A stretch of 64,000 nt of DNA from Xanthomonas bromi (GTDB lineage: Bacteria > Pseudomonadota > Gammaproteobacteria > Xanthomonadales > Xanthomonadaceae): assembly GCF_900092025.1 (NCBI RefSeq), contig NZ_FLTX01000027.1, forward strand, positions 62,001-126,000. The letters run 5' to 3'. Shown one piece after another: positions 53,916 through 61,981 of the stretch. A program made the translations under genes and the position numbers. Under the pieces are notes generated by a model, which worked only from the letters and a program-made list of their open reading frames with translations, ran no database searches and had not been told where the DNA came from. Position 1 is the stretch's first letter, and each line of letters opens with the position of its first letter.

Positions 53916-54800
53916 TCAACCGAACGCGGTCAGCTTGGCACGCGCCACACCGGCCGCCAACTGCCCTGGCCAATCGCGGTCGTTGGCCACCTGCGCTTGC
54001 GCGCGGCTGGCCTCGAACGCAGCGAAGTCCAACTCCGCCAGTGCCCACACCGTCTCGCCCCGGGTCTGCGCCAGCACGCCATCGGCGGGAAAGCCGACAT
54101 CCATCGGTGCAAACACCGCGGCCTCGCCGGTGTTGATGTCCAACGCAGGGCTCCAGGGCGCTTCGCCCGCGGTCACCGATTGCGCGACAAACACGCGGTT
54201 TTCCAGCGCGCGCGCCAGGCAGCCGATGCGCACGCGCATGGCACCGGCCGCGGTGTCGGTGCAGCTGGGCACGATCAACAACCGCGCACCGGCCTCGTAT
54301 TGCGCACGTACCGGCAGCGGGAACTCGCTGTCGTAGCAGATTGCGATTGCCGCGCGGATGCCGTCCAGTTCGAACACCTTCAATGCATCGCCGGGCTCGA
54401 TCAGCCCGGTGGCTTTTTCGAAGCCGGTGAGCTGCAACTTGTCTTGCCAGCCATGCAGGCCCTCCGGGGTGAACCAGTCGCTGCGATTGCGGTAGCGGCC
54501 ATGGCCCAGATCCAGCAAAAAGCTGCCGGCGATCAGATGCAGCCGATGTTCCCGCGCCAACCCGGCAAATAGCTCCAGCCACGGCGTGCGCAGTGCCTGG
54601 ATAGCGGCCAGCGATTCGGGCAAGCCGGCCGAAATAAGCGTGCCGAAGGTTGCGCCCAGCTCCAGCGACAGATATTCGGGCAGCACCACCACCCGCGCAC
54701 CGGCAGCGGCGGCCTCGCCGACCAGGGCCGACTGACGCGCGGCAAACGCGGCGAAATCGGCGGGTTTGCCGATCGGGTATTTGGCGACGGCGATTTTCAT
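53916..54800 (-). CDS. Carbon-nitrogen hydrolase (nitrilase superfamily)
   Basis: 294 residues. The nitrilase triad is Glu42 (VVVLPEYLS), Lys121 (WQDKLQLTGFE) and Cys155 (AIAICYDSEFPLP). It hydrolyses a C-N bond in an amide or nitrile, but the substrate group is not evident; it resembles the amidase-like branch. It has no signal peptide and therefore acts in the cytoplasm. It is followed by the DUF3616 gene. Confidence 0.88.
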   Translation of the reverse strand: MKIAVAKYPIGKPADFAAFAARQSALVGEAAAAGARVVVLPEYLSLELGATFGTLISAGLPESLAAIQALRTPWLELFAGLAREHRLHLIAGSFLLDLGHGRYRNRSDWFTPEGLHGWQDKLQLTGFEKATGLIEPGDALKVFELDGIRAAIAICYDSEFPLPVRAQYEAGARLLIVPSCTDTAAGAMRVRIGCLARALENRVFVAQSVTAGEAPWSPALDINTGEAAVFAPMDVGFPADGVLAQTRGETVWALAELDFAAFEASRAQAQVANDRDWPGQLAAGVARAKLTAFG

Positions 54801-55572: not shown

Positions 55573-55994
55573 TCAACGCAGCCAACGACCATGGTTCGCC
55601 ATGCTGGCCTCGGGCTGTTGCCACAACAACCACACCGCTGTTTCTTCGGTCGCCAGCAATACCCCGAGCAGCCCATCAATGCTGCGTGCCCAGTCGCTGC
55701 CATCGCGCAGCCGTTGCCACGGTCCGTCGCTGCGCGTCCGTGCGTCGCCGGTGGGAGTGTATTGCTGCGGCGATGACTGCAAAAACGCGACCCGCCAATG
55801 CGCAACCGCTGCGCGGTGCCTGCGTGCATCTGCAGGCCCACCACGCCGCGGCGCCCGTCGCGATTCAGCGGCAAGGCCGATAGCGCCGAGCATCCCCAGG
55901 GTTGCGGCCGCGCTACGGGCAGCAGCGCCACCGTGTCGATACCGGCGGGCCGCAAACGCTGCGCCCACCGATGCAACTGCGCATGCGCCCTCAT
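55573..55994 (-). pseudogene. Hypothetical protein downstream of creD, frameshifted
   Basis: The start at 55994 lies 8 bases after the creD stop begins. The first half (MRAHAQLHRWAQRLRPAGID, ALLPVARPQPWG) and the second half (AHWRVAFLQSSPQQYTPTGD, ETAVWLLWQQPEASMANHGR) lie in different frames. The change falls near 55790-55815, where one base looks lost in a CAGCG-rich stretch. The combined product would be about 140 residues. I do not recognise a family. Confidence 0.55.
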
Positions 55995-56001
55995 GCCGGC
56001 C

Positions 56002-57306
56002 TCAGCGCAGACTGTTGCCAAGCTCGTACCACTCGAGCTTGCGGGTCACCCACATGATGCTGGCCAGGATGCCGAACAGCATCAACGCCCCCATCAGCAG
56101 CGCGTTGTCTTCGGAGATCAGCAGGCTGTAGAGCACGGCGTACAACGCGGTGAGCAGCACCGAAAAACCCGCCGCACGCACCCAGCTGCGCAACACGCCC
56201 TGCAGCCCGATACACGCTGCCGCCGAGACCAGATACGCCTGCCAGAACGCGATGCGCTCGGAAAGGCTGAGCAGCAGCAGGAAGAAGATCGCCAGCGCCA
56301 GCCCCACCAACAGGGACTGCAATGGATGGATCGGCAGACGCTTGATCAACTCGAACAGCACGAACGCCACAAACGTCAGCACCACGAACAGGATGCCGTC
56401 CTTGCTGGCCGGGTCGGCCTGGGTATCCACGTCCACCGGGTCGACCAGGCGCACTTCCAGCGTATCCAGCGACGCTTGGCTGGACTGCAACTGCGTCTGC
56501 GCACTGGTAGCAGGCGACGACAGCGACCAACTCGCATCGAAGCCCCTCGGCCCGATGCTCGGCGCCTTCGGCAGGAAGCGGCCACCGAAGGACGGGTGCT
56601 GCCAGGTAGAGCGCAGCGCAATCTCGTTGTTGTCGGCAATCGGTGCGATGGCCAGCCGGCGCGTCCCGTCCAGCACGAACTGCATGTTCACCACAGTGCC
56701 GTCCTGCAGCCGGCCAGCGACCGGGTCGGCCAGCGGACGCAGTGGGGCATGGATGCCCGTCGAGCGATCGGCCAACGCGCCTGCACCGCTCTGCAATGCC
56801 AGTGTGCGGTCATCCACCTGCAGGCGCGGCGCGCCCACCAGCCCGCGCACGTCGGAGATGCCGATCGCCAAGTGCGGCTGGCCATACACCCGGGTTGGCG
56901 CCGCCGCGTAATCGAGTGGATCGTATTCGGCATGCAGTGTGGCTTTCCAGGAGTACACATGTACCCGGTACATGCCCACCTCTCTTACCGAGGGCACCAG
57001 CTCGCCGCTGAGTTTCAGGCTGCGCGGTGTTTGCAGCAGCGCACCTTCGCGCTTGCGCCACACCTTGCGCTGGTTGCCCTGCTCGTCCGGCTCGGTGACC
57101 TGCACTTCTTCGGTATACGGCAGCACCCGCACCGGCGCGATGAACTGCTGCTCGCCGGCCTTGCTCTGCGCCACCCGCTTCACCGCCTCGTCGCGGTAGC
57201 GCGCGCGGTCCTGCACCGCGCCACGGATCAACAGCAGTGGAATCAGCAACAGCAGGATCAGCCCGCCGATGGTGGCGAACCGCAATAACAGTGTCAGGGA
57301 TTTCAT
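56002..57306 (-). CDS. CreD-type inner-membrane protein
   Basis: 434 residues. One N-terminal helix (about 10-30) precedes a large periplasmic domain (about 40-280), followed by about five helices at the C-terminus (LIKRLPIHPLQSLLVGLALAIFFLLL and onwards). The domain blocks SLKLSGELVPSVREVGMYRV and LAIGISDVRGLVGAPRL are those of CreD. CreD is a CreBC-regulated envelope protein; loss alters colicin tolerance in E. coli. It lies downstream of a phased TTC motif array (57366-57392) and apart from creB and creC, with a peptidase gene in between. Confidence 0.9.
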   Translation of the reverse strand: MKSLTLLLRFATIGGLILLLLIPLLLIRGAVQDRARYRDEAVKRVAQSKAGEQQFIAPVRVLPYTEEVQVTEPDEQGNQRKVWRKREGALLQTPRSLKLSGELVPSVREVGMYRVHVYSWKATLHAEYDPLDYAAAPTRVYGQPHLAIGISDVRGLVGAPRLQVDDRTLALQSGAGALADRSTGIHAPLRPLADPVAGRLQDGTVVNMQFVLDGTRRLAIAPIADNNEIALRSTWQHPSFGGRFLPKAPSIGPRGFDASWSLSSPATSAQTQLQSSQASLDTLEVRLVDPVDVDTQADPASKDGILFVVLTFVAFVLFELIKRLPIHPLQSLLVGLALAIFFLLLLSLSERIAFWQAYLVSAAACIGLQGVLRSWVRAAGFSVLLTALYAVLYSLLISEDNALLMGALMLFGILASIMWVTRKLEWYELGNSLR

Positions 57307-57365
57307 CGGCCATCCTCAGCTTGGGAGGTCGCCAGGGTGCGATGCGCCGGCATGGGGGGTTTGAG

Positions 57366-57392
57366 GCGAATTTGAAGCGAATGTGAAGTGAA
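57366..57392 (-). promoter_or_regulatory. CreB-tag-like TTC half-site array upstream of creD
   Basis: On the minus strand the order is TTCAC, TTCAC, TTCGC, TTCAA, TTCGC at 5/6-nt steps. TTCAC-N6-TTCAA (57387-57372) matches 9 of 10 fixed positions of the cre/blr tag TTCACnnnnnnTTCAC. The array is 60-86 bp upstream of the creD start, where activation by CreB would be expected. Confidence 0.62.
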
Positions 57393-57749
57393 CGACCCGG
57401 ATGCTCGCCGGCCAGCACCATGACGCGATGAAGACATGCGCCTTTCAGATTCCGAAAGTGCGAGCCACGCCCATAACAAACTTCCTTTTCATCGACAACG
57501 CTTCGCGTTGCCCGCACAGAGATCGACGCCACGCGCAACGATGCACGGGCAGTTGCGCACTCCTGAAGCGTCGCGTTGTTTGGGTGATTGTTTTTCGTTG
57601 GTTGGGGCTTTCCATTTCCACTGTTCGTCGATGACTTTTTTAAGTCGCGTGCACTGCAGCCGCTTGGTTGCGGCTGCATGCCTGCTCGGCGATTGCTTCA
57701 GAGCTGCGCACAACTGCATCCCCCTTTTTTTGCCCGGAGTCTGCTTTAC
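57393..57749. other. Divergent control region of creD and the C1 peptidase
   Basis: About 360 bp without a gene. It holds poly-T stretches near 57588-57634 and at 57725-57732 (TTTTTTTT). The GGAG ribosome binding site of the peptidase gene lies at 57736-57739. No clear -35/-10 pair was assigned. Confidence 0.45.
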
Positions 57750-58568
57750 ATGACCACGCAACGCTCGCTTGCCCTTTGCCTGCTCGCCACCCTGAGCCTG
57801 ACCGCCACCGCCACCGCCGCGCAGGCGGCAGTGCACGGGATGGGCCTGAAACCTTCGTCACTGATGCAGCCGGTGACTCCATTGTTCGGCACTGCAAGCG
57901 TCAGCAAATCGTTACCCGCCAGTGTCGACTTGACTGCGTGGGCGGTCACGCCGGGCGACCAGGGGCAGGTTGGGTCATGCGCATCCTGGGCGACTGGCTA
58001 TACCCTGACCGGTTGGTATGCCAACGCCAACAAACAGGCGCAGACCCGCTTTGCCCCGATGTATCTCTATAGCCAGGTCAACGGCGGCGCCGATGGAGGT
58101 TCCACCTTGGAAGCCCCGTTGGAAGTGGCGCTGGCGCAGGGCATCGACACCGAGCAGCATTATTCTTGGGGCAACTACGACTGGAAGAGCCAACCCACCG
58201 CCGCCGACCGTGCCAATGCGGCCAAGAACCCGACGCCGTATCGCAAATACACCGTGTTGTATTCGGGCAATGGTAACGGTGGACGCGCCTTGATCGAGCA
58301 GATCAAACTCGCCCTTGCCTCTTCCACACCGGTGGCGATCGGCTTCTATGTGCGCGAAGGGTTTGAAGAACTGACACCCAAGAATCAGGTCGACTACGAC
58401 ATCAAGACGCCGATCCTGGGTGGACATGGGGTCGTCGCGCTGGGCTACGACAGCGAAGGACTGATCGTGGAAAACAGCTGGGGCACCGAATGGGGCAACA
58501 AGGGCTTTGGCAAGCTGTCCTGGTCGGTCGTCGCCAAGGACGTCATCGCCGCCGACGTTGTCCACTAA
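57750..58568 (+). CDS. Secreted papain-like cysteine peptidase (C1, xylellain-like)
   Basis: 272 residues; a signal peptide ends AQAA (about 27). Catalytic residues are Gln73 and Cys77 (QGQVGSCASWATGY), His at about 226 (GGHGVVALGY) and Asn at about 241 (ENSWGTEWGNKGFG). The enzyme resembles xylellain of Xylella, a papain-type peptidase with a short pro-region. It would be exported and could act on plant or envelope protein. The gene lies between creC and creD on the opposite strand, converging with creC. Confidence 0.87.
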   Translation: MTTQRSLALCLLATLSLTATATAAQAAVHGMGLKPSSLMQPVTPLFGTASVSKSLPASVDLTAWAVTPGDQGQVGSCASWATGYTLTGWYANANKQAQTRFAPMYLYSQVNGGADGGSTLEAPLEVALAQGIDTEQHYSWGNYDWKSQPTAADRANAAKNPTPYRKYTVLYSGNGNGGRALIEQIKLALASSTPVAIGFYVREGFEELTPKNQVDYDIKTPILGGHGVVALGYDSEGLIVENSWGTEWGNKGFGKLSWSVVAKDVIAADVVH

Positions 58569-58698: not shown

Positions 58699-60176
58699 TC
58701 AGCCGGCTGGCAGGCGCAACACCGCAATCGCACCGACACCGTTGCGATTGCCCAACCTCACGTCTCCGCCATGCAGGCGCGCAACCTCACGCACGAACGG
58801 CAAGCCAAGACCGGAGCTGCGCTGACCGGTCTGCGGGCGTGCCAGCGAATAGAACCGCTCGAAGACGCGCTCGATCGCGTAATCCGGCACGACACTGCCG
58901 CGGTCTTCGACCGCCAATTCCCAATGTCCATGGCGCAACTGCGCATATAGCCGCACATGGCTGCGCTGCGGCGAGAACGCGATGGCGTTTTCCAGCAGGT
59001 TGATCAATGCCTGACGCAGCAAGAAGCCATCGCTGAGCACCTGGTGATCGCCTGGCATTGCAGCGCCTGTATCGACCTCCACCAAAAACGCCCGCCGCCG
59101 CCGCGTGCAACGACACCGCTTCCACGGCAGCCTGCAGCAGTCCGGCCACACCAATGCGCTCGCGCGTCGGCAACCAGCCGTGCTGCTCCACCTCGGCCAG
59201 CGCCAGCAGCTTGTCGATGGTTTCGGTCAGCCGTTGCTCCTGCGCGCGGATACTGGCAACGAAATGCTGGCGATCGGCTTCGGGCAGTGGTTCGGTCAAC
59301 AGCTCGGATGCACCGCGAATCGCCACCAGCGGACTTTCCATCTCGTGCATCAGCGACTGCACGTACTGCTCCACGCAAGCCTTGCCTTCCAGCTTGCGGC
59401 GCATACGTTCCAGCGCCTGGCCCAGGTCGCCGATTTCATCGCTACGCGGTTTGGGCGGCGCTACCGGGAAGCCGGCGCTCACCGCCTGCGCATAGCGATT
59501 GAGCCGCCCGATGCCGCGCATCAACCACCACGTCATCAAAATGCCGATCAATGCGGAAATGCCGATCAACCAGGCACCGCGCTGCAGGATATTGCGCTGG
59601 CTGGCTTGGATGAAGGGATCGATGCTGCGGTTGGGCTGGGCCACGGTGAGGACGCCGATCAACTTGCCGGGTTGGTCGGGCGCATAGATCGGTGCGGCCA
59701 CATGCATGACGGTTGCGCTGGGGTCGCCATCGAGTTCCGGACTGGAACGCGCGCCGTACTCGCCGCGCAAGGTGCGGTAGACATCGTTCCAGCGCGAGTT
59801 GTCGCGGCCTACGTCGCGGCCCAGCGAATCGAACGCCACCACCCCGCGCGCATCGGTCACGGTGACGCGCTAGTCCACATTAGTTCTTGCGAAAACGCCA
59901 CACCCGCGCCTTGGGATCGCGCTGCTGCGCACTGGCCACGTTGCGCGCGAAGCTGCCATCGGCAAGCGTGCCGGCGACCAGTTCGCTGCTGGCGATTTCC
60001 GCCAACACATTGGCCGCATCCACCAGCGTGGATTCCATCGCCTGCCGCACCCCTGGCTTGACCTCGTTGACGAATACGCGCATCACGAAGAACGCGGCCA
60101 GGCCCAAGATCAGGAAGAAGCCCAGAAACAGCTTGAGACCGAGCCGCATGTCAGCGCGCGGCCTCGCCAGGATCAC
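58699..60176 (-). pseudogene. CreC-type histidine kinase, disrupted by three lesions
   Basis: A GTG start at 60176 (AAGGA 5 bases upstream) encodes a membrane helix GLKLFLGFFLILGLAAFFV and a periplasmic domain, but the frame stops at a TAA at 59880-59882. The next piece begins after a TAG at 59870-59872 and continues through a HAMP region and HisKA (YVQSLMHEMESPLVAIRGA; His in LMHEME). A third break in an A5 run (59084-59088) precedes the ATP-binding part, which has N-box LINLLENAIAF, VEDRGSVV and GLGLPFV. Lesions include a nonsense codon, so sequencing error alone is unlikely. It lies downstream of creB. Confidence 0.88.
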
Positions 60177-60197: not shown

Positions 60198-60890
60198 CTA
60201 GACCTCCAGCGCGTAGCCAAGGCCACGGTAGGTGCGGATCGGGTCGGCCGGCACGCCGGCCAGACGCAGCTTGCTGCGTAGCGTCTTGATGTGGGTGTCG
60301 ACGGTGCGGTCGGCACTGTCGGCGCTGGCATCCCAACCGCGGTCCATCAGCTGCGCGCGACTCAGGATCGCACCGGGGCGCTGCAGCAACGCCGCCAGCA
60401 ATGCGTATTCGTAACGGGTCAACGGCAACAAGGCATCGCCGTAGCGGATGCGGCTGCCGTCGTGGTGGATCGCGAACGCCCCATGCGGTTGCCAGCCCGA
60501 TTCGGCCGCCGCGCCCGCGTTGCGTCGGCGCAACCGTGCGCGCACGCGCGCCACCAGTTCGCGTGGCGAGAACGGCTTGGCCATGTAGTCGTCGGCGCCC
60601 AGCTCCAGCCCGAGCACGCGGTCGATCTCGTCGTTGCGCGCGGTCAGGAAGATCACCGGCACCTCGCTGAAACTGCGCAACATGCGGCACACCTCGAAGC
60701 CATTGATGTCCGGCAGGCCGACATCCAGCACCACCACATCGGCCGGATCGGCGCGCAGCCGCGCCAGCGCATCGCGCCCCGGCAGACAGTGCTCAGGCGC
60801 ATAGCCCTCGCTGCGCAGCGCGTAGAGCACGGCATCGGCAATGGCGGCTTCGTCTTCGACGACGAGCACGCAGGCGGGAGACTCGGACAT
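60198..60890 (-). CDS. CreB-type response regulator
   Basis: 230 residues of the OmpR/PhoB type. The receiver domain has the acidic pair VVEDE, phospho-acceptor Asp56 (VVVLDVGLP) and Lys at about 107 (MAKPFSP). The DNA-binding winged helix (about 130-228) includes LTRYEYALLAALLQ, DRTVDTHIKTLRSKL and the closing TYRGLGYALEV. It is intact, 22 bases before the damaged creC kinase gene, with which it forms an operon. It should bind tags of the type seen upstream of creD. Confidence 0.9.
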   Translation of the reverse strand: MSESPACVLVVEDEAAIADAVLYALRSEGYAPEHCLPGRDALARLRADPADVVVLDVGLPDINGFEVCRMLRSFSEVPVIFLTARNDEIDRVLGLELGADDYMAKPFSPRELVARVRARLRRRNAGAAAESGWQPHGAFAIHHDGSRIRYGDALLPLTRYEYALLAALLQRPGAILSRAQLMDRGWDASADSADRTVDTHIKTLRSKLRLAGVPADPIRTYRGLGYALEV

Positions 60891-61072
60891 GCCGCGCAGC
60901 ATGGTGGGATGCGGGCCGCCCTACAGACCGAGGGGGGCCGCGCCGGGCGGGGGCCGCGACAGCACGCTGCGTGCGGTATCGCGCAACATTCCGATACCGC
61001 CACGGCGCACCTGCGCCGGCCTGCCGTGCAATGGGCCGCAACAAACCTGGCCGCAGCCTCTACACTGCCGCG

Positions 61073-61981
61073 ATGAATTATCGCCACGCCTTCCATGCCG
61101 GCAACCATGCCGACGTGCTCAAGCACATCGCCCTGCTTGCCTTGATCGACACCCTCAAGCGCAAGGACACCCCGTTCTTCGTGCTGGATACCCACGCCGG
61201 GCGGGGGCGCTACCAGCTCGGTGGCGAAGAAAGCCGCAAGACCAACGAGGCCGATGCAGGCGTGATGCGGCTGATGGCCGAGGCGACCTTGCCCGAGGTG
61301 GTCGAGCGCTACCTGCGCGCGGTGCAAGCCGACAACCAGACCGTCGCCCGCCCGGCCACGCCCGGCCAGAAGCCCATGCGCCCCACGGCCGGCATCCAGC
61401 TCAATTACTACCCCGGATCGCCGCTGCTGGCCGCGCAGGCGCTGCGCGAACAGGACCGCATGGCGTTTTGCGAACTGCAGCCCGACGAAGCCGAAGCGCT
61501 CAAGGGCCTGTTCGCCAGGGACAGCCGCGTCCGCGTGCATGCGGGCGACGGCTATGCGGCAATCCGCGCCTTCCTGCCGCCCCGGGCGGGCGAGACCAAG
61601 ATCGGCCGCGGGCTGGTGCTGATCGACCCGCCCTACGAATCGCGGGATGCCGAATACCAGCAGATCGTCCATAGCGTGCGCGAGGTGCTGGCGCGCTGGC
61701 CGCAGGCGATTTGCATGGTGTGGTACCCGATCAAGCTGCGCCGCAGCCTGCAGCCGTTCATGCGCAAGGCCGCCACGCTGCCGGCCAAGTCGGTGCTGGT
61801 CGCCGAGCTGCAGGTGCGCCCGGACGATTCGCCGCTGCGTCTGACCGGCAGCGGGCTGCTGATCGTCAATGCCCCCTGGCAGTTCGACCAGGCGCTGGCG
61901 CCGGCGCTGCCAGTCCTCAAGACACATCTCGGCGAGCCGGGGGCCTCGACCCGGCTGGAGTGGCTGCGCCAGGACGGCTGA
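61073..61981 (+). CDS. 23S rRNA (adenine-2030-N6)-methyltransferase RlmJ
   Basis: 302 residues. The start MNYRHAFHAGNHADVLKHI is a strong family signature. SAM binding is expected at VLDTHAGRGRY (about 42-52), and the N6-adenine methyltransferase motif is IDPPYE at about 184-189. The last third binds the rRNA substrate. It is a housekeeping enzyme of ribosome maturation and stands alone, with divergent creB on its left. Confidence 0.94.
   Translation: MNYRHAFHAGNHADVLKHIALLALIDTLKRKDTPFFVLDTHAGRGRYQLGGEESRKTNEADAGVMRLMAEATLPEVVERYLRAVQADNQTVARPATPGQKPMRPTAGIQLNYYPGSPLLAAQALREQDRMAFCELQPDEAEALKGLFARDSRVRVHAGDGYAAIRAFLPPRAGETKIGRGLVLIDPPYESRDAEYQQIVHSVREVLARWPQAICMVWYPIKLRRSLQPFMRKAATLPAKSVLVAELQVRPDDSPLRLTGSGLLIVNAPWQFDQALAPALPVLKTHLGEPGASTRLEWLRQDG

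What the first reader, a model, noticed from the sequence alone, without database searches (positions are those of the whole stretch)
57366..57392. Phased CreB-tag-like array upstream of creD, beside a broken creC
On the creD strand TTC(A/G)(C/A) half-sites occur five times in two interleaved 11-bp series. One pair fits the known cre/blr tag (TTCAC-N6-TTCAC) at 9 of 10 fixed bases. Established knowledge: CreB binds such tags in E. coli and its orthologue BlrA does so in Aeromonas. Here creB is intact, the kinase gene creC is broken, and creD keeps its array, so creD may be driven by another kinase, by acetyl phosphate, or not at all.
Basis: partly seen in the sequence, partly recalled or inferred. 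Interest (0 to 1): 0.78.

Follow-up and report, generated by a model that had tools for sequence, protein, structure and literature searches.

The report
Four-unit CreB control array before creD
The repeats before the gene creD are part of a conserved docking strip for the regulator CreB that looks longer than the textbook tag, and in this Xanthomonas the strip, the sensor gene and creD itself all show signs of decay.

Summary
The five TTC half-sites exist at 57366-57392, but only part is a conserved site: TTCAC-N6-TTCAA (57387-57372), seen in 33 of 34 other Xanthomonas rows. The first TTCAC (57392-57388) is window-only; the TTCGC copies are spacer. The creD tag is already published for S. maltophilia.

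Apparently new: aligned without gaps over 32 genera of the family, the tag is the upstream half of four 11-bp-phased units. CA pairs recur at offsets 2, 13, 24 and 35, then an invariant A and T suggest a -10 hexamer 14 bp past the last CA, with no recognisable -35. E. coli creD and another family share this, with a 10- or 9-bp step between the pairs. The module tracks creB: 72 of 76 creB+ loci score at least 13/15, against 0 of 16 creB- loci in genomes at least 90% complete. This resembles a pho-box-type activated promoter.

creC is one open frame in 22 of 24 named Xanthomonas relatives, broken in the window. There the unit-4 CA is also lost, the gene after creD is frame-broken, and creD has excess replacement changes (3 silent/13 replacement; others 68/39), unlike three neighbouring genes. 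Best reading: a known CreB operator with an extended architecture, decaying here. No binding or expression data.

The parts
57383..57387 (-). Unit 1 of the CreB array (TTCAC); first half of the cre/blr tag
   Evidence: present in 34 of 34 other Xanthomonas rows, 7 of them second copies of a named genome; in one locus per genus T1 and C2 32 of 32, T0 and A3 31, C4 30 (these columns were used to place the alignment)
57372..57376 (-). Unit 2 (TTCAA); second half of the tag, 11 bp after unit 1
   Evidence: T12, C13, A14 in 32 of 32 genera; broken in 1 of 34 other Xanthomonas rows, L025; same tag form reported upstream of S. maltophilia creD (PMC4689548)
57361..57365 (-).
   Evidence: C24 in 32 of 32 genera and A25 in 24 of 32; TTCAA in E. 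coli
57350..57354 (-). Place of unit 4; the conserved in-phase CA is not present in this genome
   Evidence: C35 in 32 of 32 genera, A36 in 23 of 32; the window is the only one of 35 Xanthomonas rows that departs here
57334..57339 (-). Inferred -10 hexamer (pattern nAnnnT), 14 bp from the unit-4 CA position to its A
   Evidence: A49 and T53 in 32 of 32 genera; TATCCT at the same spacing in E. coli; no start site mapped
57307..57390 (-). 84-bp creD promoter block: the only stretch of the creC-creD gap that aligns with all 23 named relatives compared; it begins 3 bp before unit 1
57388..57392 (-). Extra TTCAC half-site seen only in this genome, out of 11-bp phase with units 1-4
   Evidence: absent in 24 of 24 named relatives
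57366..57370 (-). TTCGC, spacer between units 2 and 3
   Evidence: columns 17-21 variable across genera
57377..57381 (-). TTCGC, spacer between units 1 and 2 (its last C, column 10, is conserved as the base before unit 2)
56002..57306 (-). creD, inner membrane protein, open reading frame, relaxed selection in this lineage
   Evidence: PF06123 E 3.4e-126; 3 silent and 13 replacement singletons
60198..60902 (-). creB, response regulator (receiver + Trans_reg_C), open
58699..60149 (-). creC, sensor kinase gene broken into three frames
   Evidence: HAMP and HisKA piece 58790-59860, HATPase_c piece 58702-59154; third frame for the N-terminal part; one open frame in 22 of 24 named relatives
57751..58568 (+). 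Papain-like C1A peptidase gene lying between creC and creD, divergent from creD
   Evidence: PF00112 E 2.1e-15 for the longer frame 57591-58565 (the start at 57751 is my choice); blastp match in the same gap of 15 of 23 named Xanthomonas relatives
55573..55995 (-). Gene directly after creD (the position of hp136 in S. maltophilia), split over two frames here
   Evidence: one open frame of 135-140 aa in 21 of 23 named relatives, not in L019 and L020

Best explanation
The finding is the creD operator for CreB. Shown by sequence: it is a module of four direct units with 11-bp phase, in two pairs. The upstream pair is the known cre/blr tag; the downstream pair is degenerate and ends a fixed 14 bp before the A of a -10-like hexamer, with no recognisable -35 element. 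Inferred: two head-to-tail CreB dimers, made by CreC-driven phosphorylation, fill the array and the last unit holds sigma-70 in place of a -35, as PhoB does at pho boxes. In this Xanthomonas the pathway is decaying: creC and the gene after creD are frame-broken, the fourth unit's CA is lost, and creD accumulates amino-acid changes. creB is still open, so creD is most likely expressed at basal level and no longer under signal control (inferred).
For: Conserved block 80-81 bp before creD in Xanthomonas, sequence upstream of it diverged. Ungapped profile, one locus per genus, 32 genera: C24, C35, A49 and T53 without exception, besides the tag columns that placed the alignment; in 73 tag-bearing creB+ loci C24 73, C35 72, A49 with T53 72. 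Replication outside the family: E. coli 6 of 6 extension bases at step 10; of 18 other loci 7 score 6/6 and 5 score 5/6 at step 9, 2 score 5/6 at step 11; unchosen steps give 0-3. Tie to creB: score of at least 13/15 in 72 of 76 creB+ loci; in 3 of 24 creB- loci, all three from genomes 81-86% complete; in 0 of 16 creB- loci from genomes at least 90% complete; largest of 1520 shuffles 12. In the genus, 30 of 30 genomes with creB and creC matches have the creD-type tag, 0 of 5 in which they are missing or fragmentary. Decay: of the 25 Xanthomonas rows whose cre genes were examined, only the three with broken or fragmentary cre genes (window, L020, L025) depart at 17 conserved operator columns. 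creD 3 silent/13 replacement against 68/39, p=0.0009; creC HisKA piece 2/8 against 34/18, p=0.010; three neighbouring genes not raised.
Against: In S. maltophilia, deleting creBC raised creD expression and a phospho-mimic CreB had no effect (PMC4689548), which does not fit simple activation. No binding, footprint or start-site data. The creB result is unclear: 5/6 against 49/30, p=0.23, or p=0.048 if the odd row L008 is dropped. The window module still scores 13/15. creB+ loci L036, L043, L054 and L055 score below 13, and outside the family L093, L096, L100 and L117 fit poorly. Column 36 varies in 9 of 32 genera. The frame breaks come from one draft assembly of 133 contigs. Seven genes or pieces were tested for selection, so p=0.010 alone is weak.
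Confidence: 0.68

Rival explanations
1. Only the two-unit tag is the CreB site; the downstream conserved CA pairs are parts of the core promoter (a weak -35 region and spacer) read by RNA polymerase alone.
For: Units 3 and 4 are degenerate in the window's family; the published tag is two half-sites (PMC3660660, PMC4689548, passages).
Against: Both CA pairs are exactly in phase with the tag; unit 4 reads TTCAC or CTCAC in 7 of the 14 creD loci of another family and unit 3 is TTCAA in E. coli; the step between pairs changes by 1-2 bp while the distance from unit 4 to the -10 stays fixed.
Confidence: 0.2
2. CreB stays active without CreC, through another kinase or acetyl phosphate, and drives creD through the remaining three units.
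For: creB is open and not clearly relaxed; units 1-3 and the -10 are intact.
Against: Unit 4 is lost only here and creD has a replacement excess, which is not expected of a promoter and gene in use.
Confidence: 0.15
3. Loss of CreC derepresses creD, because CreBC is a repressor of creD in this family.
For: In S. maltophilia deletion of creBC raised creD expression (PMC4689548, section read).
Against: An operator in the place of a missing -35 is the layout of an activator; excess replacement changes in creD suggest disuse.
Confidence: 0.15
4. The frame breaks are assembly errors and the cre pathway works normally here.
For: 133-contig draft; no second genome of this species was available to me.
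Against: Independent substitution-level signals: damaged unit 4 and replacement excess in creD, with three neighbouring genes normal; the gene after creD is also frame-broken.
Confidence: 0.15

Closest known systems
cre/blr tag of CreB (E. coli) and BlrA (Aeromonas), TTCAC-N6-TTCAC
   Same: Units 1-2 match 9 of 10 fixed bases, upstream of creD, tied to creB across genomes
   Different: The conserved module has two more phased units and a fixed -10-like hexamer; the passages I could read speak of two half-sites only
S. maltophilia creD tag TTCACACTCGCTTCAA at -80 to -65 (PMC4689548)
   Same: Same half-sites and distance from creD
   Different: There creBC is present and was reported to lower creD expression; units 3-4 are not mentioned in the passages I read
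pho box of PhoB
   Same: 11-bp direct repeats bound head to tail by an OmpR/PhoB-family regulator (PMC4415409 and PMC2648988, passages); the spacing to the -10 and the lack of a -35 resemble what I recall of pho promoters (recalled, not looked up)
   Different: Sequence CTGTCAT against TTCAC; the regulator here is CreB; a variable 9-11 bp step between pairs

Membership tests
cre/blr tag | Two TTCAC half-sites, 11 bp apart | tested here: met
   9 of 10 fixed bases at 57387-57372
cre/blr tag | Lies upstream of a cre regulon gene, classically creD | tested here: met
   unit 1 starts 81 bp upstream of the creD start; creD by PF06123
cre/blr tag | Present together with the regulator CreB | tested here: met
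   tag at 9/10 or better in 73 of 76 creB+ and 3 of 24 creB- loci; full module 72 of 76 against 0 of 16 creB- loci in genomes at least 90% complete
cre/blr tag | Bound by phosphorylated CreB/BlrA | not testable with these tools
   needs a binding assay
pho-box-type activator promoter | Direct repeats with 11-bp period | tested here: met
   CA at offsets 2, 13, 24, 35; in the window itself the fourth is lost
pho-box-type activator promoter | -10 element without consensus -35 | tested here: inconclusive
   A49 and T53 in 32 of 32 genera; no sigma-70-type pair in 57290-57760, but only 0.2 expected in shuffles; no start site mapped
pho-box-type activator promoter | Repeat sequence CTGTCAT | tested here: not met
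   repeat is CTTCA(C/A); so it is not a pho box, it only resembles one in layout
pho-box-type activator promoter | Regulator contacts sigma-70 region 4 | not testable with these tools
   structure or mutational data needed

The most novel reading that the evidence does not exclude
The cre tag as defined is only half of the CreB operator: creD promoters from E. coli to Xanthomonas carry a four-unit array for two CreB dimers, with an elastic 9-11 bp step between the pairs and a rigid 14-bp distance from the last unit to the -10, and this operator erodes together with creC and creD when a lineage gives up the pathway.
Probability: 0.6. Interest if true: 0.6.

Novelty: new variant of a known kind. 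Interest (0 to 1): 0.5.

Why it matters
It turns a short, weakly specific tag, which is not enriched in this genome, into a longer promoter grammar that separates creB+ from creB- loci, and it gives a testable model of how CreB would activate transcription. The decaying lineage shows which part of a two-component circuit can be lost and how its operator follows.

Tried and rejected
Two interleaved series as the functional unit: rejected, the second series is spacer. Dispersed CreB regulon in this genome by the tag: no support, 3 sites against 7 control matches. A second recurrent tag-like site (TTCAC, variable middle, TTATTCAC) upstream of a lipoprotein-like gene was read in three genomes; it is on the strand opposite to the gene and was not pursued. 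The site at G000:C114 was only displayed. RNA or inverted-repeat readings were not tested. The full four-unit pattern could not be searched genome-wide. Failed or unused: (stops in a requested frame); and the N-terminal creC query (frame off by one); one search's display of the window, which took the extra TTCAC as the tag start (one search uses the conserved start), where loci of - strand matches were read in the wrong orientation (one search replaces it). Rows dropped: 6 of 60 with tag below 9 before the profile; G080 and G175 among creD+ creB- genomes; L092 at a contig edge, L110 (same place as L097) and L120 (second piece of one creD) outside the family; two control genes whose coordinates gave stops.

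Full report
What was claimed and what is there. The five TTC half-sites are in the sequence at 57366-57392 on the - strand. creD (56002-57306, PF06123, E 3.4e-126), creB (receiver plus Trans_reg_C) and parts of creC (HAMP and HisKA in one frame, HATPase_c in another) are confirmed by Pfam. The window lies in a 4.84-Mb, 133-contig draft genome of a Xanthomonas; the species was not determined, and the closest CreD among named loci is X. nasturtii at 92%.

Conservation inside the genus. I fetched 25 named creD loci: 24 Xanthomonas and one Lysobacterales MAG (L024). In the Xanthomonas loci the block CTTCAC-N5-CTTCAA-ATTCGCCTCAAA or a close variant stands 80-81 bp before creD, while the sequence further upstream differs; L025 has a broken unit 2. 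In the creC-creD gap, 23 named loci were compared with the window: the stretch that aligns in 23 of 23 is the last 84 bp or so, beginning 3 bp before the conserved TTCAC. A papain-like peptidase gene lies in this gap in the window and in 15 of 23 named relatives, so the module has kept its integrity while the DNA beside it changed.

Conservation across the family. CreD was found in 192 of 247 family genomes and a CreB match at E 1e-55 or better in 169 of 247. Counted by hand from the two lists: both in 166, creD alone in 26 (one of them, G175, only as fragments), creB alone in 3, neither in 52. I read 60 creD upstream regions first (3 of them creB-) and 40 more later, of which 21 were chosen because creB was missing; G080 (contig edge) and G175 were left out. 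In these 100 regions the tag at 9/10 or better (A or C allowed as last base) occurs in 73 of 76 creB+ and 3 of 24 creB-. Two of those three are full modules in genomes 82% and 86% complete; the third (L126) sits at an odd distance. In two loci (L068, L082) creB lies about 5 kb upstream and the tag stays with creD. Inside the genus, 30 of 30 genomes with creB and creC matches have a creD-type tag; the 5 in which they are missing or fragmentary (G175, G252, G256, G257, G264) have none.

The longer module. I aligned one locus per genus (32 genera, after dropping 6 of 60 rows with a tag below 9) at the tag without gaps. The tag columns placed the alignment. Beyond them, columns without exception are C24, C35, A49 and T53. 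A25 (24 of 32) and A36 (23 of 32) complete CA pairs exactly 11 bp apart and in phase with the tag's CA pairs at 2-3 and 13-14. A49 and T53 fit the two key letters of a -10 hexamer at 48-53. In the larger set of 73 tag-bearing creB+ loci: C24 73, C35 72, A49 with T53 72. A consensus sigma-70 search of 57290-57760 finds no promoter, with 0.2 expected in shuffles, so that alone is weak.

Replication elsewhere. E. coli MG1655 creD has TTCAC, TTCAC, TTCAA, CCCAC and TATCCT, with 10 instead of 11 bp between units 2 and 3, and again 14 bp from the last CA to the A of the hexamer. From a second family of the class (14 of 60 genomes have creD) and a class-wide sample (19 of 229), 18 loci were scored after the tag alone had placed them: 7 reach 6/6 extension bases and 5 reach 5/6 at a step of 9, 2 reach 5/6 at a step of 11, 1 (L093) reaches 4/6, and 3 (L096, L100, L117) do not fit; unchosen steps give 0-3. 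creB or creC nearby was checked for only 5 of these 18 and found in all 5. A 15-point score of the whole module gives 13 or more in 72 of 76 creB+ loci, in 3 of 24 creB- loci (L121, L122, L123, genomes 81-86% complete) and in 0 of 16 creB- loci from genomes at least 90% complete; 1520 shuffled sequences reach 12 at most. Six class-sample loci without creBC found in the 2.6 kb upstream score 9-12. The window scores 13. The model and its steps were chosen after seeing part of the data, and genomes are not independent, so I give no combined p value.

Decay in this genome. creC is one open frame in 22 of 24 named Xanthomonas relatives; the exceptions are L020 (also broken, with a truncated creD) and L025 (X. 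populi, creD fragmented, creBC not on the contig). At 17 family-conserved operator columns, 32 of 35 Xanthomonas rows show no departure (7 rows are second copies of a named genome); the three that do are the window (unit 4), L025 (unit 2) and L020 (the base before unit 1). For the 10 rows L069-L078 the cre genes were seen only in part. Single-lineage changes in otherwise uniform columns: window creD 3 silent and 13 replacement against 68 and 39 in 22 others (one-sided Fisher p=0.0009); creC HisKA piece 2 and 8 against 34 and 18 (p=0.010); creC ATPase piece 0 and 3 against 12 and 16 (p=0.22); creB 5 and 6 against 49 and 30 (p=0.23; p=0.048 without L008, whose creB has 17 of those 30 replacements). 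Controls: C1 peptidase 6 and 4 against 35 and 86 (p=0.99), 60971-61981 7 and 4 against 52 and 25 (p=0.52), 53916-54800 1 and 1 against 41 and 42 (p=0.76); the names rlmJ-like and nitrilase that I gave the last two in the script are recalled, not tested. Two further control pieces were dropped because my coordinates gave stops. The gene just after creD, open in 21 of 23 named relatives, is split over two frames in the window. Sequencing error could make frame breaks but hardly a replacement excess limited to this locus.

How it most likely works. Shown: the module, its spacing, its tie to creB, its damage here. From established knowledge: OmpR/PhoB-family regulators bind 11-bp direct repeats head to tail (PMC4415409 and PMC2648988, passages read), and CreB/BlrA acts through the TTCAC tag (PMC3660660 and PMC4689548, passages read). 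Inferred: two CreB dimers on four units, with the last unit standing in for a -35. Against a simple activator: in S. maltophilia creBC deletion raised creD expression and a phospho-mimic CreB changed nothing (PMC4689548, abstract, section 19 and passages). With creC broken and unit 4 damaged, signal control of creD is probably lost here.

Novelty. The tag before creD is known, including in S. maltophilia. I found no description of units 3-4 or of the fixed -10 spacing in the listings, nor in the passages read of PMC4689548, PMC5402928 and PMC3660660; the library lacks most subscription papers, and the E. coli promoter study I recall (Cariss and colleagues, 2008) was not held, so it may already be described there.

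Noticed in passing
57751-58568: A papain-like C1A peptidase gene sits between creC and creD in the window and 15 of 23 named Xanthomonas relatives but not in the other 8 (e.g. L010, L011, L012); the shared sequence of the two groups begins just upstream of the creD operator.
   Followed up: partly
L004, L021, L023, L001, creC-creD gap: The gap holds repeated segments of about 110-170 bp, some inverted, that match each other between these loci.
   Followed up: no
L101, L102, L103, about 2.1 kb into each: A tag-like site TTCAC-NNN-TTATTCAC with variable middle recurs in many of 35 Xanthomonas genomes; in these three it lies upstream of a gene with MNRSLLATTIASCLVLTACGGGGG, on the opposite strand.
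   Followed up: partly
L008 creB: creB of the X. floridensis locus has 17 replacement and 7 silent single-lineage changes and only 83.5% identity to the window, perhaps a local frame change.
   Followed up: no
L093, L106, L114: Some creD promoters outside the family seem to carry a fifth or displaced unit (last CA at offset 44 or 55) while keeping 14 bp to an AnnnT hexamer.
   Followed up: no
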